Source of the DNA: Candidatus Nomurabacteria bacterium
GTDB taxonomy: Bacteria > Patescibacteriota > Saccharimonadia > Saccharimonadales > Saccharimonadaceae
Assembly: GCA_031262565.1 (NCBI GenBank)
Contig: JAISHL010000025.1
Span: 1-17,599 of the forward strand
Direction: 5' to 3'
DNA: 17,599 nt
How positions within the stretch are numbered: position 1 is the first letter of the stretch; every line of letters starts with the position of its first letter. Below the pieces are notes generated by a model. That model did no database searches and was not told the origin of the DNA. It was given only the letters and a program-made list of their open reading frames with translations. Shown here piece after piece: positions 7,604-17,599 of the stretch. Made by a program: the position numbers and the translations under genes.

Positions 7604-8984
7604 TCACGTTTTTAGTTTTTACAAAACATTTTCGCCGCTCAATTATCAAATAGTAACCGCCATAAACCACGAAAAATATTATGACATAAGCGACGAATAA
7701 TAGTGAAAGATATAGCGCATCAAAGTTTAGACCGAAAATATTCACATTTATCACGGGCAACGAGTTGGCGATTGGCGAATTTTGTGTAAAAGCAAAGTTC
7801 GGATAAATCGCATTCACCTCGCCATATTTTGCGCCAGTCATAGATGTAATGAATTGCGAAACCGCCGCCGCGATAAAAATTACGACTGCGTAATATATCA
7901 TTGGAATTACACTGTTACGCAGCCTAAATTTGAACTCACCAAGCAAAGTTGGCAACACGCAAATCATAAACAAAACGCAGTGTGTGAAGCAAAAATACAA
8001 AAAAGAATAATTGAAAACCGTGCCAAAATTTGACATTTCGTCCCTGCCAAAATAGACAAAAACCGCCAGCGCGCCAGCCGCATGCACAAAAAACGCGATA
8101 TTATTCAAAACTTTTTTCTTCAAAAAAATCGCCAGCGCCGCCACAGGAACGCCAATATTGCAAATAAACAGCGGAATGAACGCCAAAATCGTGTAATAAA
8201 CATTATAGCCGTCACCAATCAACATCGACGCCTTGCTCATATATTGCACCAACAGTGCCAAAGCCAGCACGCGGAGATATTTATACCTCGTCTGGCTGCT
8301 TTTATTTTTCAAAAAACGATACACCAAAAATGTCACAAAAAACACGGTCGCCAGCGCCAGAAAATGCCAAACCGTGAAGTTTTTGAATTTCAGAAAACTA
8401 TATAAAGCACTGTCGGGCGCAACCAATCTTCCCTCGCCAAAAATATTATTAAACAAATTCAGTGGCATTGTAATGAGAAAAATCGGCAGAAAATTCGCGA
8501 ATTGTTTTGTTTTTTGCGCGCGGTTTTGCGTGGAAGTTTTTTCGGTTTTTTGCCCACCCAGCCAGAGGGTCGTTGCGATAATCGCCATTAAAACGCTTTG
8601 CAAAATGAACAATATTAGAACCAAAATCTTCGGCATGAACATATTGAGATTCCAGTAAATTTCTTGATACGAATTGACGGGAATTTTCGCCAGATTTATA
8701 TATTGATTAGTCCAAAATAGCGAGAGTAGCGGCGTGAGGACGAGCAAGGTTTTAATCGGTGCATCAAATCGTTTAGTTTTTAGAAAAACCGCAACGGGAA
8801 TCGCCACCAAGCCAGCAAGTTTCAGCCACTGTAACAGAGTAAAAATCGCGTCGCCAAAATTTTGAATATGCCCGAACGAATAAAAATAATTGAACGAAAA
8901 AAAGCTAGCGAACGAGACCGCAAGCAAAATAATCGTCAGAGTAATCTGCGTGATGCGAAGTTTTTTGGCAGATATTTTCAACAT
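7599..8984 (-). CDS. Polytopic membrane protein, YwaF/TMEM164-like
   Basis: 461 residues with about ten or eleven membrane helices. The second half recalls the YwaF/TMEM164 (intg_mem) family: PLFICNI at 271-277 resembles the family PLHxC segment (here without the His), HAAGALAVF at 301-309 the small-residue turn after it, and FTHCVLF at 333-339 the conserved H-containing helix. Function of that family in bacteria is unknown. I chose ATG 8984 over the in-frame TTG 8996 because a GATAAT box (8996-9001) overlaps the latter and no ribosome site supports it. It lies between the surface beta-helix gene and lemA, suggesting an envelope role. Family link is tentative. Confidence 0.72.
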   Translation of the reverse strand: MLKISAKKLRITQITLTIILLAVSFASFFSFNYFYSFGHIQNFGDAIFTLLQWLKLAGLVAIPVAVFLKTKRFDAPIKTLLVLTPLLSLFWTNQYINLAKIPVNSYQEIYWNLNMFMPKILVLILFILQSVLMAIIATTLWLGGQKTEKTSTQNRAQKTKQFANFLPIFLITMPLNLFNNIFGEGRLVAPDSALYSFLKFKNFTVWHFLALATVFFVTFLVYRFLKNKSSQTRYKYLRVLALALLVQYMSKASMLIGDGYNVYYTILAFIPLFICNIGVPVAALAIFLKKKVLNNIAFFVHAAGALAVFVYFGRDEMSNFGTVFNYSFLYFCFTHCVLFMICVLPTLLGEFKFRLRNSVIPMIYYAVVIFIAAAVSQFITSMTGAKYGEVNAIYPNFAFTQNSPIANSLPVINVNIFGLNFDALYLSLLFVAYVIIFFVVYGGYYLIIERRKCFVKTKNVI

Positions 8985-9028: not shown

Positions 9029-11749
9029 TTATTTTAGCATAAAACGGGCAACGAGTTTAACTATTGCAAAAATTCCGCCCGTTGATCCAAGAATAATAGT
9101 GGCAACAACAAGTATTACAGTTGCCGTGTCGGATGATTTTTGATCGGAATTATTATCTTCGTTTTTGTTTGTTTGCTTTTTAGCGTCTTCATGCTTCTTT
9201 GAGCCTTTATTTTCCGCAACTTCAAGTTGCTCCTCTTCATTGTCTTCTCTTGCAGATTCCGAATTGCTTTCTGTTGTTGGGGCGCTATTCGTCTTTGGAG
9301 CAACAGAATAACTGTCCGATCTAGGTGTGGCGGAATTAACCTCAGATGGATTTACGGCTACTTCAGGTTCGCTATTTTCTGGGGAGTCTTGCTCGGTAGC
9401 AACTTGATTTTCTGCTGGTTCTTTATAACCAATTTGACTAGTTAAGATATTATCAAAATTAGGAATGACTTTCCTAACCTCCGCCAAACCAGAATCGCTT
9501 AATTCAAAATCTTTGCCATATTCCTTAAAAATAGAAGTTCCGTCTTCCAGTAATTCCGTTTTAGAATAAAAAGTGTTTTCCTCCGTGCTATTTAAGTCCG
9601 CAACTCCGCCCTTTCCGTCGCCTGGCTTGTTTGCCCCCACCACAACGTTGTTCCTAAAAATATTCGTATATGACGGAGCGTTCTTCAGAGCATATTCGTT
9701 TAGTGCCGCCAACACCTCTGCCTCCGCTTGTTTCTGAGCCGCCTCGTCCATTTTCTTCACCTCTTCCAGTCCGCCCAGCTCCGCTAACTTCGCCTCCACA
9801 ATTCCCTGCATAGCCGTGTGGTGTTCTAATTTGAAATAATCGTAAAATTTGCGGGCGTAAAAGTCTGGGCTATTATAATGTTCCAGATATAGATCCGTTA
9901 AAACATTATTAGTTGTGGTGATTTTTTCAAAAATGCCATTTTCAGAATAGCCGCCCATGGAATACAGCCACATAAACCAGTTGTTTTGAATCATTTGGTC
10001 ATTAGCACCCGCCCACGACTGAAAATACGCCACCCATTTGTAACCCGCTATAATGTTATTTTCTATTAACCCAAACTGTGCGCCATTGGTTTTAATTGGG
10101 ACATTGCCCGTAAAATGGGAGTCATAAAAAATGTTGTGGTGGATGTGGGGCGTAATGGCGCCATCGTCTGCAAAAATCGCTTGCTGACCGTAACCTCCGT
10201 AGCCGTTACCTATGTCGTGAAAATAATTGTAGCGAATTTCAATCCCCATTACGGACGGATCTCTGCCGTAATAAATAGCCCCCATATCCGAAGCCTCCAG
10301 AACGGCGTTATATATTTCATTTTTTTCTATAATAATATCATTTGAACCTATACCAATTATCTGGTGCGGATTATTATAAATCTCATTATTACGAATTACG
10401 AGCCCCATGCTGGCGGCGCCAATTGCGGGAACGTAAGACTGGCTGAGGCGATTTGCATTGTCATGGATTTTATTATTTTCTATTACGTTATTTCCATATT
10501 TGAAGTCTTTTACGCTGCCACCGTAAACAGTTACTCCGCCATTTGCGTTGTCATAAATGTGCGAATTTTTAATGGTTATATTATACCCGCCAAAAGATGC
10601 TGCACTAGAGGAATTATGAGCAATTACGCAGTTATCTATGGTGATATTATTTGTGTCGCTCTGAAAATCTAAGAACTTTGCGCCGCTATATTTAAAGTCC
10701 AAATCTTTAAAAATTAAGTTATCTGCTTCGCGAACTAATAACATAGAGTCCTGCAAAGTGGAAATATAAACATCTGCGGTTTCATAATCTTCCGTGGGGT
10801 AAAAATAGACTTTTTTGTTTTCTAAATCATTATAACTTTCGCCTGCCACATCAATTTCATCCAGCACATTTAAGAAGTAAAACGGGTTATTGTCATATAC
10901 GCCAAAGTCATTCCAGCCAACATCTATTTGTTTTGTTGTCTTATTAAAACTCTTCACGCTTGCCATGTCGTCTTGCCATGAATAATGCAAGTAGCCGTGA
11001 ATATAAGCGCCTTTTAGGGTTTCATCCGTCCAAAGATTTGCGCGGTTTTCTGTGTCTTCAAAAGACATATTGAAGCTTTTTACCAAATCTCCCACATAGT
11101 CATGATCTGTGTAGCCATCATTTATAATATCCGTCCTAAGTTTTGAATTTTCCGCCGTTTTATTTGGGTAGCGCGCTGGCGTTAGGGCGTTTTCTCCAAA
11201 ATAAACCGTTGGCAAGTTACGCGTGCGCTTTTCAATTGTCTTCCCCGTATATTCATCAACTTCGTCATGAACTAAGGGCTGAAGTTCTATATTTGTAGCG
11301 GAATAGTCTAATACTAGCAATTCATTGCGAGCGGTGGGGTCTATAATACGGTTTAAAATATTCTGGTCTGTAACTTTTGAGATGTTATTTTTGCCAATTT
11401 TCTGACCACCAATGAAGGTTACTTTTTCGTTTTTTACGGCTTGGTATGTGATGGGGGCGTTTTCATAACCAGAATCTTGATTATCTAATTTAATTTGACT
11501 GTCTAAAAAATATTCCCCGCCGCGAAAGTTAACAGTGATGGGCCGAGGGTTTTCTACGTTATTTTCTTTGTTCTGCTGTTTGATTTCTCTGATTTTTGCT
11601 TGAACTTCCTCAAAAGTCTGGAACTCTTCGCTGCCGTCTGCAGCAACGTAAAGATTTATAGGTTCAGAGGAGTTATTTGTGGAATTTGCGGAGGCAACTG
11701 GAATTAAAGCTATAATGAAGGCTGAGATTAAAAATATTTTCTTAAACAT
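9029..11749 (-). CDS. Secreted, membrane-anchored right-handed parallel beta-helix protein (GH141-like)
   Basis: 906 residues. Signal peptide 1-21 (MFKKIF start, cleavage after ASA). The mature N-terminus has the layout of beta-helix glycoside hydrolases related to GH141: PRPITVNFRGGEYFLDSQI (68-86) and a following SGYENAPITYQA stretch. The beta-helix core (about 340-600) has repeated NNxI turns such as NNEIYNN and NDIIIEKNEIYNA, and contains SDMGAIYYGRD (487-497), a motif typical of this group. A Ser/Glu/Asn/Thr-rich linker (about 776-874) leads to a membrane helix (about 876-898) and a short basic tail, so the domain is displayed outside and tethered. AGGAG lies 5 nt before the ATG. Likely a glycan-degrading or glycan-binding surface protein; the substrate is unknown. 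Confidence 0.88.
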   Translation of the reverse strand: MFKKIFLISAFIIALIPVASANSTNNSSEPINLYVAADGSEEFQTFEEVQAKIREIKQQNKENNVENPRPITVNFRGGEYFLDSQIKLDNQDSGYENAPITYQAVKNEKVTFIGGQKIGKNNISKVTDQNILNRIIDPTARNELLVLDYSATNIELQPLVHDEVDEYTGKTIEKRTRNLPTVYFGENALTPARYPNKTAENSKLRTDIINDGYTDHDYVGDLVKSFNMSFEDTENRANLWTDETLKGAYIHGYLHYSWQDDMASVKSFNKTTKQIDVGWNDFGVYDNNPFYFLNVLDEIDVAGESYNDLENKKVYFYPTEDYETADVYISTLQDSMLLVREADNLIFKDLDFKYSGAKFLDFQSDTNNITIDNCVIAHNSSSAASFGGYNITIKNSHIYDNANGGVTVYGGSVKDFKYGNNVIENNKIHDNANRLSQSYVPAIGAASMGLVIRNNEIYNNPHQIIGIGSNDIIIEKNEIYNAVLEASDMGAIYYGRDPSVMGIEIRYNYFHDIGNGYGGYGQQAIFADDGAITPHIHHNIFYDSHFTGNVPIKTNGAQFGLIENNIIAGYKWVAYFQSWAGANDQMIQNNWFMWLYSMGGYSENGIFEKITTTNNVLTDLYLEHYNSPDFYARKFYDYFKLEHHTAMQGIVEAKLAELGGLEEVKKMDEAAQKQAEAEVLAALNEYALKNAPSYTNIFRNNVVVGANKPGDGKGGVADLNSTEENTFYSKTELLEDGTSIFKEYGKDFELSDSGLAEVRKVIPNFDNILTSQIGYKEPAENQVATEQDSPENSEPEVAVNPSEVNSATPRSDSYSVAPKTNSAPTTESNSESAREDNEEEQLEVAENKGSKKHEDAKKQTNKNEDNNSDQKSSDTATVILVVATIILGSTGGIFAIVKLVARFMLK

Positions 11750-12042: not shown

Positions 12043-12108
12043 TTATAACTGGATTTTGTAGCAGCGATTTATGTACGCTTTTATACGGTTTTTAATATTA
12101 TCATTCAT
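12043..12108 (-). CDS. Possible 21-residue ORF coupled to the Fic gene
   Basis: An ATG overlaps the Fic TGA stop as ATGA, with GAGGAGG 4 nt upstream (encoded by the Fic protein's last Glu codons), the strongest ribosome site in the window. The frame gives 21 residues (MNDNIKNRIKAY start, basic, one Cys) before TAA. It may be a real small partner, or the remnant of a longer gene after deletion. No family recognised. Confidence 0.3.
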   Translation of the reverse strand: MNDNIKNRIKAYINRCYKIQL

Positions 12109-13031
12109 ATTTCCTCCTCATATTCGTCAATGCTGTCGGCGATCGTCATTACAATCAACATTTCTAGCGGGTCATAGTTTTCGTTCATTTGTGCGTCCTC
12201 CAAATATTTATAATATGCGGTGCGTTTATCGCGCGGAATGATTGGCGGAAAAATGCCATTTTGTAACGCCAAACCAAGCAAAATCAGTCGCCCCGTTCGA
12301 CCGTTACCATCGGAAAATGGGTGAATTTTCTCAAACTCGGCATGCGTCATCGCCATGAGCCCGATCAAATCAGTTGTCTCACTATTTAATTGGTTGCACA
12401 AATTCTGGATTGCAGTTGGAATATTTATAAAGTTTACAAGTGGCACATGCGCACCCATAATTCGTGCGCCGTGATTGCGATATTCGCCAGCGTTTGAAAT
12501 TATTCCCGACATGAGCCTGAGGTGAATCGCTCGAATCAAATCTGGCGTCCATGCGAACGGGCGATATTTGTCGTTTAATTCATCAAGTAGAAAGTTCAGT
12601 GCGGTTTGATGATTTATTGCCTCGCGCTGCTCTGTGGCGGTGCGATTTTTTAGAACTTTGTTATCGAAAATCACATCAGAAACGTCGGAGGCAGTCATTG
12701 TGCTACCCTCGATTGAGTTTGTGTGATATGTCAAATTAACAGTGATATTGTCGAGCAAATTGCGGTTTGCTATTAGTTTTTTGGCTGTCAATTTTGTTCG
12801 CGTCGCTATGGTTTTTAGTGTTTTTAGCTTATCTATATCAACCGAACTTGTCCCGACAATATTGTCATAGACTCGGTCGATTTTCGCAATGTAGTCCGTG
12901 CGCGTCGGCGTTGATTTTGCATTCACCCAACTGTTTACAGTGGCGAACGACACTCCAATTTCGCCAGCTAGCTTTTCCTGCGACCACCCGCTGGCGGTCA
13001 AAATTTGTTTGAGTTTTTGATCGTAATTCAT
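12105..13031 (-). CDS. XRE helix-turn-helix / Fic domain protein (class II AMPylase)
   Basis: 308 residues. An N-terminal XRE-type HTH (about 4-50; WSQEKLAGEIGVSFATVNSW at 16-35 is the helix-turn-helix) is fused to a Fic domain. The catalytic loop HPFSDGNGRTGR (237-248) is complete, with His237 and the phosphate-binding residues. TNSIEG at 104-109 fits the [ST]xxxE[GN] inhibitory motif placed before the Fic core, which defines class II Fic proteins. The family usually transfers AMP from ATP to hydroxyls of target proteins; the HTH suggests DNA binding and self-regulation. I use ATG 13031 over the TTG at 13067, because that TTG is the -35 element. Palindromes on its promoter support autoregulation. 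Confidence 0.92.
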   Translation of the reverse strand: MNYDQKLKQILTASGWSQEKLAGEIGVSFATVNSWVNAKSTPTRTDYIAKIDRVYDNIVGTSSVDIDKLKTLKTIATRTKLTAKKLIANRNLLDNITVNLTYHTNSIEGSTMTASDVSDVIFDNKVLKNRTATEQREAINHQTALNFLLDELNDKYRPFAWTPDLIRAIHLRLMSGIISNAGEYRNHGARIMGAHVPLVNFINIPTAIQNLCNQLNSETTDLIGLMAMTHAEFEKIHPFSDGNGRTGRLILLGLALQNGIFPPIIPRDKRTAYYKYLEDAQMNENYDPLEMLIVMTIADSIDEYEEEI

Positions 13032-13038
13032 ATTACTA

Positions 13039-13080
13039 ATGGTAGCAAACTTTATAAAGTCCGTCAAGTCTTTATAAAGT
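13039..13080 (-). promoter_or_regulatory. Autoregulatory promoter/operator of the Fic gene
   Basis: On the minus strand: TTGACG (13062-13067), 17-bp spacer, TACCAT (13039-13044), then 7 nt to the ATG, so the mRNA is probably leaderless. The 12-bp perfect palindrome ACTTTATAAAGT (13049-13060) sits exactly in the spacer. A second core, CTTTATAAAG (13070-13079), lies upstream of the -35, its centre 20 bp away, about two helical turns. Binding by the protein's own HTH would block RNA polymerase. Confidence 0.7.
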
Positions 13081-13161: not shown

Positions 13162-16100
13162 CTAAATTAGTTCAATAGGATTAAATGTTAGTTTTGCTTC
13201 TTCGGCGGTTAAAATTTCGCGAGATAAGCCTTTGTCGATTTTATCTTTTAAATATCCGCGGGCTGCGATATTAAAAGCAGCCTGCTTATCAGCGTCGCAA
13301 ATATGATGACAATCTACATACGGACAAACATAAACGCCAATATTACCACGAGATTTTCCTGCTCCAAATTTTTCTTGTAGTTTAGCAAATTTTTCTTCGC
13401 CTAACGTCCTCTCAACTATTTTCATCCCGCCAAATAAAACTTTTTTATCCTCATCAACAAACATATTTGGACGCATCGCTTTATAGATCGCCGAGCGTAA
13501 ATCCTTACCCGCCATCTTATCTCCGACTTTTCCACCTTTTATATAACATCTGACTTCTTTTTCGTCTGACTCATCAGTACTCTGCTTGTTTGCTATGTTT
13601 GGAATTTTGACCGTGGCTAAACCGTCTTCATTGATTGTAGCAATCTCGGTTTCATAATTGTCCGCAATATCTAGGCTAGTCCATTTATGACATTTGGTGC
13701 AAAATTGCGAAGTACCCGCTGCTGGCGGGGTTAAACCCCAAACAACTGCTTGATGTCTATTTTTTGGCTTCCCATCTTTTTGTTCAATATTTCCCCAAGC
13801 CTGATTATTATCCGCTTTCTCAGCATCAGTCGTTCCAAAAATATCTCCACGCTTTATGCTATCATAAATCTTTTTAATTTTATTCTTACCAAATTCCAAC
13901 CCAGATATTTCCATTTCGAAAGATAACCTTGCTTGATAACGAATACTTAAATCTTCAAGCCTTGCTTTATAATACCCCAATGTATTTTCTCTAATTTTTG
14001 CTATTTTTGTATCGGCGGATGTGAATGTTGCTTTTACTTGTTTTGCTCGCAAATCATTTACGGCAATATTTAATTTCTGATGACTGCCAGATGTAATAAA
14101 TTCTTCATCTTCTTTCAGATCAAAAATCTTTACTTTCCCGTCACTTACTTCAATCACGCAAACCGCCAAACCGTATTCACCAACGTCAACACCCATAAAG
14201 CGATTCGGCTTAATATTCTCGCTACGGTCAATCATTTTTTTCGGATTTGGATTTGGATTTAATTGAAAACCTTGAACGGTAATCACGCGATTATTTTCTT
14301 TACTGTAAACTTTTTTATTGCCTTTGTGATAAAATGGGTCTTTATATTTTATACGTTTGAGTTCCGGATATTCTCCATCCCAATCAATAAGCCAATCTTG
14401 CTCTACCAAAGAAAAAGCACCTTGAAAATCTAAGCCGCATTTCTTTCCTACAAACTCACCAGCCCCTTCTTTTTTGCCAGTTTCTTTATTCTTCTTTTTT
14501 ATTTCATGGCTATGTTTGCCAAAAAGCCAATCCAAAAATTGCGTTTGATAATACGACGTGCGAATCTCCAAAAAATATCCGCCATCATTAAATTTCTTGA
14601 TGTTTTGATATTCTTTCTTCTCTTTGTCATCTTTACACTCGCTCAAATCCTGAAAATTGTGTAAGTCAAATTTGTTTGATTTGTGCGATATTCTTATATT
14701 CTGCATTTTAGGCACATCAGTCGTTAGATCAGGAAAAACATAACCATACTTATCACCACATTTCGCCAAATATACCTGCGACCCACTCGTCGCTTGTATC
14801 ATGTAATGACTAATAATTTCTCGTTTTGAAATAATCGCCGCTAAACCAGATAATTCACTATGTGCGTTACGAAGGTTGATAGATATTTTTCGCCCTTCTT
14901 CTGTCGTCAGCTCATTGGTTGTATAAACTAAATCAGAAATCATAACCTTGGATAAATTTGCGAAATCACGAATGACATTTTGTTTTGCGAAATTAGTTTT
15001 TACCTTATCAAATAAATCACTAAAATTACAAATTGTTAAGATATCTTTCAATGACATTGTGTTTTCTATCGGCAGCTCTCTTAGTCTGCCTTTAGATTTT
15101 GCTAACGGGGATAAATAATAGCTTGCTTGCAATTTAGCTTTTTTCTTGCCATCTTTATCTTTATATCTCTCATCAAAATCAACATCTAATTTACTCTGTA
15201 TTTCTGAAAGCACCCCATAAATAACAGATGTCCTATCATTATTTAGGTTATCCCATACTCTTGCTAAGGTTTCAACTTTTTTCGATTCAAATATAACATC
15301 GTCTTGCAATTTTAAGATCTCTTCACCATAAACCGTTTTTATTACTTCAATTTGTCTTAATATGTTCTGTTTGGCATTATAGGCTTTCTTGAATCTTTCT
15401 TGATTTCCTTCACCGAAAAACAATGGTGAATTTTGGATCTTTTGGTCAAGTCTTGCTCGGAGCGGATTTTTATTACTTTTTTCTTCCGTTCCGCCATCAT
15501 CTCGTTTCTTCTTATCTGGTAAAAAACTAGGATTAGCTTGGCAAAATTCATTCAGACTACTCCTTAGATCTGCCTGCATATCGAAAATAACATCTGTTTG
15601 TTCTCGTTTAATTTTACATTTTACCAATAATTCACGAATTTTTTGCTCATATTTGTTCAATTCAACAAAACCTTCTTCTTTTTTCGGTTTTGGCGGGAGT
15701 TCTTTCGGCAAATCTGGAATTTTGACAAGATAATCATTTAATAACTCGCAATCTTGATAAAATCGTTCGTTCACCAAACTATCTTTTTGAGATTTTTCTT
15801 TTAATTCAGCTGTGGCATTTCGTAAATCAATTAACCCCTTAATAGTTTCCAATTGTTTCGTTTCGCGGTTTTTATACCAACTAGCAAGTGCTTTCATAAA
15901 GTCTGTGCGATATTCTGCCCAACTGGAGATTAATTTGGGTAACGGAATCCGTTTAGTGTATTCCGCAATCTCATTAAATCGCTTTTTCAGTATTTCTTTT
16001 TGCCCATTATCCCATTTGAATATTTTGGCTTGTTTTTCTATCTCCTCCGAAATACTGGAATCGTTCTTAAAAATATCAGGAAAATACCGCAAAAAAGCAT

Positions 16101-17028
16101 TAACCATTCCGCCACTATTGCCAATTCCGATAAAAGTAGTTGCAGATTTTTTATCAGTTTTATTTTGATAATAATCAAGTAATTTATCAAAAAAAGCCGT
16201 GCGGTTTGTCATATCTAAATCGTCAATTTTGAAATTTGGATCACACGCAAACACCAATTCTGTCTTTAAGTCAATTTTCTCATTATCACCCTCCTCGTTA
16301 TCGCTACTACCATTCAAATCAATGCCAAAAACTCTCGCTTTCAATTCTTGATAATTGCCACCGTTTTTATCATATTCTTTTCTCAACTTCACAAATTCAC
16401 TAGCGACATTTTCAAGTTTTTCCTTGGCTTCCGACTTAATTTGACTAATTTTGTTACCATTCGCGTTTTCAACTTTTTCAAAATGTTCATCTTTTGCTAA
16501 GTTATAAATAAGAACTTTTTGTTCATCTCCTTGCTTTTTCTTATCGTTTTGCCCAATATCTCGCGGATCTTTCGGAAACCATTCGGCAAATTTATTGTAA
16601 TCAAGTAAATTCTTGACATCATCATTAATCTTGTCAAAAATTGCACGCACATCAGTTTGGCAACCAAACAAACTGCCAGCTAAAATTGGCAGTGCACCTT
16701 TCTTACCAAAAGCACAACCCAGCGACAAGGTTTTAATCCATAAACCCAAAATCGTGTATGGTTGCTCAGGCAAGCTATTGTCTTGCTGTCGTTTTTTCCG
16801 CCACTCTACAAAATCTGAAAAATTTGTATTTCCGTAGAGAATTTTATAGTCATTTTTAATTGCGTCTAAAACATCTTTCTTTAGGTCGCTGTCATTGACG
16901 TTGGCAAGGGGATATTTAATAGACCGAATGCTTTTAGTTCCACCAGAATATGCTATGCGAGCGTCGTGTAGGCGGTAGCCACGTTTTCCTTGTTTGCGCT
17001 TTTCTTGTTTTTTGCGATTCTTTTCCAT
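13162..17028 (-). CDS. cas12d: CRISPR-associated RNA-guided DNA nuclease Cas12d (CasY), type V-D
   Basis: A complete 1,288-residue Cas12d, the single effector that cuts DNA under crRNA and scoutRNA guidance. Family segments I recognise: GYRLHDARIAYSG (17-29) and SIRSIKYPL (33-41) at the N-terminus, TFIGIGNSGG (298-307), and RTSYYQTQFLDWLFG (823-837). The split RuvC nuclease is intact: RuvC-I GVDVGEYG with D948, RuvC-II FEMEIS (1037-1042; E1038 or E1040), RuvC-III CDADKQAAFNIA with D1245/D1247. A zinc-ribbon-like insert has CTKC (C1110, C1113) and CPYVDC (C1235, C1240). There is no HNH domain. AAAGGA lies 11 nt before the ATG. The gene looks more A+T-rich than obg, consistent with transfer. 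Array and putative scoutRNA lie immediately upstream; no adaptation genes in the window. Confidence 0.97.
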   Translation of the reverse strand: MEKNRKKQEKRKQGKRGYRLHDARIAYSGGTKSIRSIKYPLANVNDSDLKKDVLDAIKNDYKILYGNTNFSDFVEWRKKRQQDNSLPEQPYTILGLWIKTLSLGCAFGKKGALPILAGSLFGCQTDVRAIFDKINDDVKNLLDYNKFAEWFPKDPRDIGQNDKKKQGDEQKVLIYNLAKDEHFEKVENANGNKISQIKSEAKEKLENVASEFVKLRKEYDKNGGNYQELKARVFGIDLNGSSDNEEGDNEKIDLKTELVFACDPNFKIDDLDMTNRTAFFDKLLDYYQNKTDKKSATTFIGIGNSGGMVNAFLRYFPDIFKNDSSISEEIEKQAKIFKWDNGQKEILKKRFNEIAEYTKRIPLPKLISSWAEYRTDFMKALASWYKNRETKQLETIKGLIDLRNATAELKEKSQKDSLVNERFYQDCELLNDYLVKIPDLPKELPPKPKKEEGFVELNKYEQKIRELLVKCKIKREQTDVIFDMQADLRSSLNEFCQANPSFLPDKKKRDDGGTEEKSNKNPLRARLDQKIQNSPLFFGEGNQERFKKAYNAKQNILRQIEVIKTVYGEEILKLQDDVIFESKKVETLARVWDNLNNDRTSVIYGVLSEIQSKLDVDFDERYKDKDGKKKAKLQASYYLSPLAKSKGRLRELPIENTMSLKDILTICNFSDLFDKVKTNFAKQNVIRDFANLSKVMISDLVYTTNELTTEEGRKISINLRNAHSELSGLAAIISKREIISHYMIQATSGSQVYLAKCGDKYGYVFPDLTTDVPKMQNIRISHKSNKFDLHNFQDLSECKDDKEKKEYQNIKKFNDGGYFLEIRTSYYQTQFLDWLFGKHSHEIKKKNKETGKKEGAGEFVGKKCGLDFQGAFSLVEQDWLIDWDGEYPELKRIKYKDPFYHKGNKKVYSKENNRVITVQGFQLNPNPNPKKMIDRSENIKPNRFMGVDVGEYGLAVCVIEVSDGKVKIFDLKEDEEFITSGSHQKLNIAVNDLRAKQVKATFTSADTKIAKIRENTLGYYKARLEDLSIRYQARLSFEMEISGLEFGKNKIKKIYDSIKRGDIFGTTDAEKADNNQAWGNIEQKDGKPKNRHQAVVWGLTPPAAGTSQFCTKCHKWTSLDIADNYETEIATINEDGLATVKIPNIANKQSTDESDEKEVRCYIKGGKVGDKMAGKDLRSAIYKAMRPNMFVDEDKKVLFGGMKIVERTLGEEKFAKLQEKFGAGKSRGNIGVYVCPYVDCHHICDADKQAAFNIAARGYLKDKIDKGLSREILTAEEAKLTFNPIELI

Positions 17029-17064
17029 TACGCCATTAATCCTTTCTTAAAATAAAAAAGCACC

Positions 17065-17088
17065 TTTACAATCTGTTGTTTTAGAAGG
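17065..17088 (+). promoter_or_regulatory. Left copy of a 24-bp inverted element, probable scoutRNA promoter
   Basis: Begins TTTACAATCTGTT and matches, at 22 of 24 positions, the reverse complement of 17412-17435. It contains TACAAT (17067-17072), a 5/6 -10 box reading rightward; the -35 region is weak. The start of transcription would be near 17079. Confidence 0.5.
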
Positions 17089-17164
17089 CTTCAAAAATTG
17101 AAGACTTAGGTGAGAAAGGCTAAAACGATTCCTTTAAACCGTTTGGAACTTACCTAAGATTTTT
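17079..17164 (+). ncRNA. Putative scoutRNA of the Cas12d system
   Basis: Type V-D systems need a scoutRNA, encoded near the array, that pairs with the crRNA repeat over only a few bases. This stretch folds strongly: CTTCAA/TTGAAG (17089-17094, 17098-17103), a 10-bp stem CTTAGGTGAG/CTTACCTAAG (17105-17114, 17149-17158), an inner AAAGG/CCTTT (17115-17119, 17131-17135), and a possible pseudoknot GTTTTAG/CTAAAAC (17078-17084, 17120-17126). CCTTT at 17131-17135 could pair with AAAGG near the repeat 3' end. A -10-like box upstream and a T run after the long stem favour the plus strand, but the minus strand carries longer repeat-complementary pieces, so the strand is uncertain. Confidence 0.5.
17105..17164 (+). 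terminator. Stem plus T run ending the putative scoutRNA
   Basis: The 10-bp stem at 17105-17114/17149-17158 (one G-U pair) is followed by ATTTTT (17159-17164). The large 34-nt apical region contains further pairing, so this is an atypical intrinsic terminator. Confidence 0.4.
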
Positions 17165-17251
17165 ACTAGAGAAAGAGTGAAAATTTTCGCTCGTCAAAGG
17201 CAAAACCTTATGCCGAGCGGCGTCAAATAAATTGACAACCGCGAGACAAAG
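17165..17251. other. Structured non-coding stretch between scoutRNA and array
   Basis: No ORF. CGCTCG (17188-17193) pairs with CGAGCG (17214-17219), enclosing GCA/TGC (17200-17202, 17211-17213); GTCAA/TTGAC (17222-17226, 17232-17236) forms another hairpin. On the minus strand it contains GCCTTTG twice (ending the array boundary at 17253 and at 17201), complementary to the 3' end of the repeat. It may be the array trailer or part of a minus-strand scoutRNA. Confidence 0.4.
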
Positions 17252-17407
17252 GCCTTTTCTCCTCTATTTTACGAGGCACTAATGTCTGTTGGGGTGCCTT
17301 TTCTCCTCTATTTTACGAGGTTTCAGCCGATACGTAGTTGCCTTTTCTCCTCTATTTTACGAGGATGAGTTCCGCTAATGGTGCCTTTTCTCCTCTATTT
17401 TACGAGG
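17252..17407 (-). CRISPR. Type V-D CRISPR array: 4 identical 25-bp repeats, 3 short spacers
   Basis: Repeats at 17252-17276, 17296-17320, 17340-17364 and 17383-17407, all identical. Spacers, given on the plus strand: cactaatgtctgttggggt (19), tttcagccgatacgtagtt (19), atgagttccgctaatggt (18). On the minus strand the repeat begins CCTCG, forms a CCTC/GAGG hairpin with an 8-nt loop, and ends AGAAAAGGC next to the spacer; the AAAGGC ending and 17-19-nt spacers fit Cas12d arrays. crRNA therefore reads leftward, in the direction of cas12d, with the leader at the right. Confidence 0.97.
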
Positions 17408-17411
17408 AGTT

Positions 17412-17435
17412 CCCTCTAAAATAACAGATTGTAAA
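17412..17435 (-). promoter_or_regulatory. Right copy of the 24-bp inverted element, leader/promoter of the array
   Basis: Minus strand begins TTTACAATCTGTT; TACAAT occupies 17428-17433. Transcription would start near 17421, 14 nt before the first repeat. The -35 is weak. The element lies on the leader side expected from the repeat orientation. Confidence 0.5.
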
Positions 17436-17442
17436 TGTACAA

Positions 17443-17470
17443 TTAACTACTAAATATGGTATCATATAAT
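17443..17470 (+). promoter_or_regulatory. Promoter of the right-edge gene
   Basis: TTAACT (17443-17448, 4/6) and perfect TATAAT (17465-17470) with a 16-bp spacer, reading away from the array. Confidence 0.55.
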
Positions 17471-17499
17471 GGTTAAAATTCAATAATTTAGGGGATTTT

Positions 17500-17599
17500 A
17501 TGCGAAATAAACATGCTTTATCACAAACTAGCGAGAGCGTCAATAATGCAAAAATAAATCAACAGAAAGCCAGTAAACGTGTGTCATTGTGGCTACCTT
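17500..17599 (+). CDS. N-terminal fragment of an unidentified protein (cut by window edge)
   Basis: ATG at 17500 with AGGGGA 5 nt upstream and a promoter at 17443-17470 opens a frame that stays open for 33 codons to the window edge. The visible part is polar and basic (MRNKHALSQTSES start, then Lys/Gln/Asn-rich) and turns hydrophobic at the edge (SLWLP), as before a membrane segment. It could be a neighbour of the CRISPR system or unrelated; it does not look like the start of Cas1 as far as can be seen. Confidence 0.6.
   Translation, partial: MRNKHALSQTSESVNNAKINQQKASKRVSLWLP

What the first reader, a model, noticed from the sequence alone, without database searches (positions are those of the whole stretch)
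17065..17435. Convergent, near-identical promoter elements bracket the scoutRNA and CRISPR array
A 24-bp element starting TTTACAATCTGTT appears at 17065-17088 on plus and at 17412-17435 on minus, 22/24 identical. Each holds a -10-like TACAAT reading inward. The right copy is where the array leader should be, so the left copy would drive a plus-strand RNA, the putative scoutRNA. That would give equal, linked expression of two RNAs that work as a pair, and I know of no description of such a shared convergent leader in Cas12d loci.
Basis: partly seen in the sequence, partly recalled or inferred. Interest (0 to 1): 0.85.

Follow-up and report, generated by a model that had tools for sequence, protein, structure and literature searches.

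The report
Leader and anti-leader bracketing Cas12d array
In this CRISPR-Cas12d locus, and in the comparable relatives tested, the leader beside the guide-RNA array has a matching reversed copy just behind the helper (scout) RNA, so one transcript could fold back and join the two; its role is unproven.

Summary
The inverted pair is real: 17062-17088 (+) and 17412-17438 (-), 24/27 identical, beyond chance. It is general: 9 of 9 testable Cas12d loci have a significant inverted match between the array leader and the region after the array. Between divergent clades the sequence differs completely, yet it still matches within each locus. Five of five loci whose scoutRNA is not beside the array show no such match.

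The scout-like core (17105-17158) reads, by comparison, on the minus strand like the array and cas12d, not plus. No sigma-70-like promoter passes at either TACAAT. The left copy follows the scout core, within 1 nt in 6 of 9 loci and 16-21 nt in 3. I propose an RNA-level 'anti-leader': the pre-crRNA leader pairs with the scout's 3' flank (predicted mean pairing 0.49-0.94 in 9 of 9), coupling scout and array. Wobble bias is weak (p=0.095), pair counts inside one clade give no support, and no RNA data exist. I found no report of this in the papers searched; the original scoutRNA paper was not held.

The parts
17062..17088 (+). left copy of the inverted element; read on the minus strand it is the 'anti-leader', after the scout core and 33 nt before the cas12d start codon
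17412..17438 (-). right copy: leader block, ending 4 nt before the first repeat on the minus strand
17252..17407 (-). CRISPR array, 4 identical 25-nt repeats and 3 spacers of 18-19 nt; crRNA strand taken as minus
17105..17158 (-). scoutRNA core: outer stem, GUUCC, inner hairpin, GCCUUU, outer stem
   Evidence: strand is an inference from comparison
17115..17120 (-). GCCUUU, complementary to the 3' end of the repeat (AAAGGC)
17089..17103 (-). short hairpin between scout core and anti-leader (window, L002 and L004 have 16-21 nt here; in the 6 other tested loci core and copy lie within 1 nt)
13162..17028 (-). cas12d, 1288 aa
   Evidence: NF033951, 1068.6 bits, cut-off 250
17500..17599 (+). start of a cas1-like gene cut off by the window's end (33 aa seen; 7 of 9 residues match L002's cas1-like ORF)
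   Evidence: E 8e-04, short match; Cas_Cas1 in the corresponding ORF of L026
17443..17470 (+). sigma-70-like site TTAACT-16-TATAAT pointing to the cas1-like gene
17495..17524 (-). sigma-70-like site GTGATA-18-TAAAAT upstream of the leader block, pointing to the array (weak; such sites are not clearly above chance)

Best explanation
The two copies are the two strands of one RNA helix, not two promoters. The pre-crRNA is transcribed on the minus strand from upstream of the leader block and runs leader, array, scoutRNA and on towards cas12d. The transcribed leader (17438-17412) pairs with the anti-leader (17088-17062) that follows the scoutRNA. Because the leader block ends 2-7 nt before the first repeat in 7 of 9 loci, and the anti-leader begins within 1 nt of the scout's outer stem in 6 of 9, the helix would place the scoutRNA beside the first (newest) crRNA repeat, adding to the 5-6 nt of direct scout:repeat complementarity. 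Shown by sequence: the pair, its generality, its locus-specific match between divergent clades, the scout-like core. Inferred: strand of the scoutRNA, read-through transcription, helix formation in vivo, and its use. I give about 0.28 overall to preferential loading or maturation of the first crRNA; the rest of this reading is a more general closing, protecting or scout-releasing helix.
For: Inverted match in 9 of 9 testable loci (0-3 of 1000 shuffles reach the score); direct orientation scores 8-13, at the shuffle level. Own leader against own copy scores 15-27; between window, L005, L009, L011, L017 and L026 foreign pairings score 7-15: complementarity is kept while the sequence changes. Eight of the 9 loci could be placed in the Cas12d tree (L009's protein is too partial) and lie in three separate places, while the 5 loci without the pair fall in one clade of 7. 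Ensemble folding: leader block pairs with anti-leader at mean P 0.49-0.94 in 9 of 9, with repeat 1 at 0.01 or less; with the leader block shuffled, 5 of the 9 loci tried gave means of 0.01-0.40. Inside the window/L002/L003/L004 clade leaders agree 22-27 of 28 with each other, copies 16-21 with each other, and copies 18-24 with their own leader. Scout strand: L004 repeat AAAGAC with scout GTCTTT. In L009 the copy lies after the first scout core, with no cas12d behind it in the stretch read.
Against: No RNA-seq or 5' end. The wobble excess expected from RNA pairing is only suggestive: 14 compatible against 7 incompatible transitions, p=0.095; 25:13 (0.036) and 8:4 (0.19) with other alignment settings. 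In the one alignable clade 88.4% of cells pair (40 of 500 shuffles as high) and 2 pairs change on both sides, which 250 of 500 shuffles reach. Inside that clade the match is not locus-specific: 3 of 4 copies fit another locus's leader better than their own (window 25 v 24, L002 24 v 23, L003 21 v 18 of 28; likewise L002's leader against the window's copy, 23 v 19). Inverted DNA repeats fold on either strand, so folding does not choose the strand. RNA duplexes over 100-nt leaders did not clearly beat shuffles in L003, L005, L011 and L026, and L004 was just above the lowest shuffle. In L005 and L009 the block ends 44-45 nt from the repeat, so the geometry argument fails there. Scout core ends, and so the gaps, were set by eye. 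Sigma-70-like sites: 6 of 9 leaders against 2.9 expected, and L009's falls inside its block, so whether the block is transcribed is open.
Confidence: 0.52

Rival explanations
1. Convergent inward promoters: TACAAT is the -10 of both; the left one drives a plus-strand RNA (scoutRNA or an antisense RNA to it).
For: TACAAT is present in both; L004's copy side holds TATAAT with TTAAAA 18 nt away, overlapping its aligned block, and L003 has an inward site outside its block; orientation is inverted in 9 of 9.
Against: No sigma-70-like site at either TACAAT; on the copy side a site overlaps the block in 1 of 9 loci. Between divergent clades the match is locus-specific rather than a shared promoter consensus, and in 7 of 9 loci it runs to within 2-7 nt of the repeat. 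The scout core reads on the other strand.
Confidence: 0.12
2. Paired DNA site: both copies are bound by one protein (a regulator of array, cas1 and cas12d, or Cas1 itself recognising the leader), and site and protein co-evolve lineage by lineage.
For: Would also give matched pairs that differ between clades but are shared inside one; in 8 of 9 loci the copy ends within 34 nt of the cas12d start or overlaps it, and in the window a cas1-directed promoter-like site lies just outside the right copy.
Against: Matched blocks are long (17-55 nt in the alignments); orientation is inverted in 9 of 9 although a binding site would not need that; L009's copy is not upstream of cas12d. No candidate regulator was tested.
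Confidence: 0.17
3. RNA pairing, but its target is cas12d: the leader RNA (in cis, or freed by processing) covers the 5' UTR or start codon of cas12d mRNA and limits its translation, or the helix splits cas12d mRNA from the guide RNAs.
For: The anti-leader ends 8-34 nt before the cas12d start in window, L002, L003, L005 and L026 and reaches or overlaps it in L004, L011 and L017.
Against: In L009 the copy follows a scout core and no cas12d lies behind it in the stretch read, to 3000. The copy's place relative to the scout end varies less (-1 to 21 nt) than relative to the start codon (-14 to 34 nt).
Confidence: 0.13
4. History, not function: repeated inverted duplication or gene conversion between leader and scout flank, or inversion of the array-scout segment, keeps the copies alike.
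For: Matched within a locus and different between clades is also what gene conversion gives.
Against: Copies are short and lie at similar anatomical positions. Array and scout keep one order and strand in the 9 loci, followed by cas12d in 8; no inverted locus seen. Copies differ from their own leader by 4-10 of 28 in the window's clade, and 3 of 4 fit another leader better, which is not fresh homogenisation.
Confidence: 0.06

Closest known systems
scoutRNA of type V-C/V-D (Harrington et al. 2020, Mol Cell; not held in the library, known here from passages of PMC8616872, PMC9522604 and PMC11127173 and from recall)
   Same: A short structured RNA with a few nucleotides complementary to the crRNA repeat; here GCCUU against AAGGC.
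   Different: No leader pairing is mentioned in the passages I read; here the RNA's 3' flank is complementary to the array leader.
Leader-repeat hairpins of II-A and VI-B systems (PMC13187072: abstract and found passages read; it describes Liao et al. 2022, which I did not read)
   Same: A transcribed leader base-pairs to control guide-RNA maturation; in II-A it also speeds the first crRNA.
   Different: There the leader pairs with the first repeat. Here pairing of the block with repeat 1 is predicted at 0.01 or less, and the partner is an anti-leader behind the scoutRNA. V-D crRNAs are repeat-spacer (recalled), so blocking an extra crRNA at the first repeat would not be needed.
Cas12c2 tracrRNA (PMC9522604, passage read)
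   Same: Helper RNA joined to crRNA by several short duplexes.
   Different: Those duplexes use the repeat, so serve every crRNA; the anti-leader can serve only the leader-proximal end.

Membership tests
Type V-D CRISPR-Cas | Cas12d effector | tested here: met
   NF033951 1068.6 bits, cut-off 250
Type V-D CRISPR-Cas | CRISPR array beside the effector | tested here: met
   4 repeats 17252-17407
Type V-D CRISPR-Cas | cas1 nearby | tested here: inconclusive
   gene cut off after 33 aa; 7 of 9 residues match a cas1-like ORF of L002; Cas_Cas1 met in L026
scoutRNA | short complementarity to the crRNA repeat | tested here: met
   14 of 14 cores with a known repeat hold the complement of its last 5 nt; 1 of 14 (L009b) holds it on the opposite strand too. 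Partly circular, as I picked cores by eye with this motif in view; the L004 co-change is the independent part
scoutRNA | RNA expressed and required for cleavage | not testable with these tools
   no RNA or assay data
scoutRNA | match to a described RNA family | tested here: not met
   no Rfam 15 match up to E=1 in 16900-17599; I know of no Rfam family for scoutRNA (recall)
Leader-repeat hairpin (II-A / VI-B type) | leader pairs with the first repeat | tested here: not met
   P 0.01 or less for the block in 9 of 9 full transcripts. The 60-nt leader alone against the repeat is reached by 4-13 of 500 shuffles in 4 of 9 loci (window, L003, L009, L026) and by 49-238 in the other 5
Convergent sigma-70 promoter pair | -35 and -10 with 16-18 nt spacing in both copies | tested here: not met
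   none at either TACAAT in the window; other promoter classes not covered

The most novel reading that the evidence does not exclude
V-D loci encode a leader-to-scoutRNA helix in one transcript that hands the scoutRNA to the first, newest crRNA: a built-in single-guide-like link that favours the latest spacer, reached by a route different from the leader-repeat hairpins of II-A and VI-B.
Probability: 0.28. Interest if true: 0.85.

Novelty: new variant of a known kind. Interest (0 to 1): 0.7.

Why it matters
How Cas12d gets its scoutRNA onto crRNAs with so little complementarity is, as far as I know, open. A leader/anti-leader match in 9 of 9 testable loci from several branches of the Cas12d tree gives a directly testable element, bears on how the array and its helper RNA are co-expressed and matured, and tells anyone rebuilding a V-D locus which flanking sequences may matter. 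It also supports placing the scoutRNA on the array strand.

Tried and rejected
Promoter reading: tested with a sigma-70 scan in the window and 8 relatives; not supported, not excluded. My first idea, that a plus-strand scoutRNA is an inverted duplicate of leader plus first repeat, was dropped once GUUCC...GCCUU appeared to be the conserved strand. A conserved upstream TATGATA box in leaders, first taken as the array promoter, reads as well or better as a cas1 promoter (TTAACT-16-TATAAT in window and L004, TTAACT-16-TAAAAT in L003), so the array start is unsettled. Leader-repeat hairpin: inconsistent, not favoured. Transposon or inverted-terminal-repeat reading: both cas genes lie outside the pair; not pursued. 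RNA duplexes over 100 nt are blurred by long extensions and do not separate own from foreign partners everywhere. In L012 and L013 the leader matches the scout-upstream region in DIRECT orientation (25, 0 of 500; 20, 6 of 500), AT-rich, not explained. Two scans of viral contigs and one search of plasmids returned no relative.

Tested 9; other architecture 5 (L012, L013, L014, L016, L018; for L014 and L018 the stretch after the array was too short to test); not testable 7, because leader, array or upstream part is off the contig or was not found (L006, L007, L008, L010, L015, L019, L020). I saw the matches by eye first and then tested all 9. For the scout core I used 17 cores of 16 loci; L006, L013, L014, L015 and L016 were left out. 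The tree has 18 rows; L006, L009 and L020 are not in it.

Full report
Observation. The inverted pair is exactly as described and slightly longer: 17062-17088 (+) and 17412-17438 (-), 24 of 27 identical, 323 nt apart. No window shuffle of 200 holds two such matches, and none of 1000 shuffles of the leader and the facing region reaches the alignment score. In the held genome a 19-nt core pattern hits these two places at 0 mismatches and two others at 3.

Setting. The minus strand carries cas12d (13162-17028; NF033951 1068.6 bits against a cut-off of 250). Upstream of it, in minus-strand order, come the leader, four 25-nt repeats (17252-17407), a scout-like core (17105-17158), the left copy, and the cas12d start 33 nt on. 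A cas1-like gene starts at 17500 (+) and is cut by the window's end.

Relatives. I gathered 21 non-redundant Cas12d loci from one scan of genome contigs (17 loci) and searches of whole genomes. Nine have a leader, an array and a scout-side region that can be compared (window, L002, L003, L004, L005, L009, L011, L017, L026). Five have the scout away from the array. Seven lack a needed part on the contig.

The pair is general and, between clades, locus-specific. Local alignment of the 150-nt leader with the reverse complement of the region between array and cas12d start (in L009, 256 nt after the array) scored 15 to 27 in 9 of 9 loci; shuffles reached it 0 (window), 0 (L002), 1 (L003), 0 (L004), 3 (L005), 0 (L009), 0 (L011), 0 (L017) and 0 (L026) times in 1000. 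The direct orientation scored 8 to 13. L005 and L003 are the weakest. Between window, L005, L009, L011, L017 and L026 the foreign pairings scored 7 to 15 against 15 to 27 for their own. So the sequence is replaced between clades but the match inside each locus is kept. Inside the window's own clade it is not locus-specific: L002's leader fits the window's copy better (23) than its own (19). In the Cas12d tree the eight placeable loci with the pair lie in three places (window with L002-L005; L026; L011 with L017), while the five with a separate scout are in one clade of seven. Those five show no inverted match: 9-15 on the scout side, reached by 99-494 of 500 shuffles, and 10-14 after the array in the three that could be tested, reached by 130-345 of 500.

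Which strand is the scoutRNA? The core I recognise in 16 loci tends to fold into an outer stem, UUCC, an inner hairpin and GCCUU, although the best single fold does not show the outer stem in every locus. Folding energies alone do not settle the strand. GCCUU is the complement of the repeat's 3' end, AAGGC, and 14 of 14 cores with a known repeat hold the complement of its last 5 nt; part of that is circular, since I looked for this motif. The independent evidence is L004, whose single remaining repeat ends AAAGAC and whose scout reads GTCTTT. In L012 and L014, by eye, a promoter-like sequence stands before the core on the cas12d strand. I therefore place the window's scoutRNA on the minus strand. 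The left copy then follows it.

What the copy does. In six of nine loci the copy begins within 1 nt of the scout core's end as I set it; in window, L002 and L004 16-21 nt lie between (in the window a short hairpin). On the leader side the block ends 2-7 nt from the first repeat in seven loci and 44-45 nt away in L005 and L009. In the folded transcript of each locus the leader block pairs with the copy at mean probability 0.49 to 0.94 and with the first repeat at 0.01 or less. With the leader block shuffled 12 times, the five loci tried gave means of 0.01 to 0.40. Within the window's clade, leaders are alike (22-27 of 28); copies agree 16-21 with each other and 24, 23, 18 and 24 with their own leader (window, L002, L003, L004). 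Copies thus resemble the leaders more than each other, as expected if the copy has to follow the leader, but three of the four fit another locus's leader slightly better than their own (25, 24 and 21).

Against the promoter reading: no sigma-70-like site passes at either TACAAT, one copy of nine (L004) has such a site overlapping the block, and the matched sequence is not shared between clades. Against my own reading: wobble-compatible transitions exceed incompatible ones only 14 to 7 (p=0.095; 25:13, p=0.036, and 8:4, p=0.194, under other settings); pair counts in the alignable clade hardly beat shuffles (88.4% paired, 40 of 500; 2 double changes, 250 of 500), though every slid register pairs far less (33-51%); the 100-nt duplex search is not clear in several loci; and the array's transcription start is unknown (6 of 9 leaders hold a sigma-70-like site, 2.9 expected; in L009 it lies inside the block).

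Literature. Searches 'scoutRNA' (18 papers), Cas12d/CasY with tracrRNA, leader and anti-repeat, leader RNA with spacer prioritization, Cas12d with scoutRNA, CRISPR array and transcription, scoutRNA with leader sequence and CRISPR array, tracrRNA with leader RNA, Cas12 and pre-crRNA and class 2 tracrRNA evolution gave no listing that points to a leader/scoutRNA match. Of the 18 scoutRNA papers I saw passages of six (PMC8616872, PMC9067536, PMC9522604, PMC11127173, PMC11246509, PMC7889808); I also saw passages of PMC6509639 and the abstract and passages of PMC13187072. The original scoutRNA paper is not held, so I cannot say that it does not mention the element.

Verdict. A real and general feature of the V-D loci that could be tested and, as far as I could search, undescribed. 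The best reading is an RNA leader/anti-leader helix that couples the scoutRNA to the array, at about even odds; its exact use is open.

Noticed in passing
L009:2720-3000: Bifidobacteriaceae locus with two scout-like cores in a row after the array; the leader's inverted copy lies between them.
   Followed up: partly
L004:3744-3768: Same-genus locus whose array has shrunk to one repeat with a changed 3' end (AAAGAC), matched by a change in the scout core (GTCTTT).
   Followed up: partly
window 17189-17218; L004:3804-3830: A hairpin-like stretch GCTCGGCA...TGACGAGC between array and scout core, shared by window and L004; GCTCGGCA is not found in L002 or L003.
   Followed up: no
L012:3815-3910 and 8555-8650: Leader region resembles the scout-upstream region in direct orientation (score 25, 0 of 500 shuffles; L013 20, 6 of 500), AT-rich; perhaps shared promoter sequence where the scout is a separate unit.
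   Followed up: no
window 12105-13067 (-): Fic/DOC-domain protein with a helix-turn-helix, directly downstream of cas12d.
   Followed up: no
window 9029-11749 (-): 906-aa protein with a right-handed beta-helix region.
   Followed up: no
window 17062-17088 and 17383-17438 (-): On the array strand the anti-leader resembles the 5' half of the repeat (CCTC-TAAAATA against CCTCGTAAAATA) in the window's clade, by eye; the scout's 3' flank may derive from a decayed repeat.
   Followed up: no
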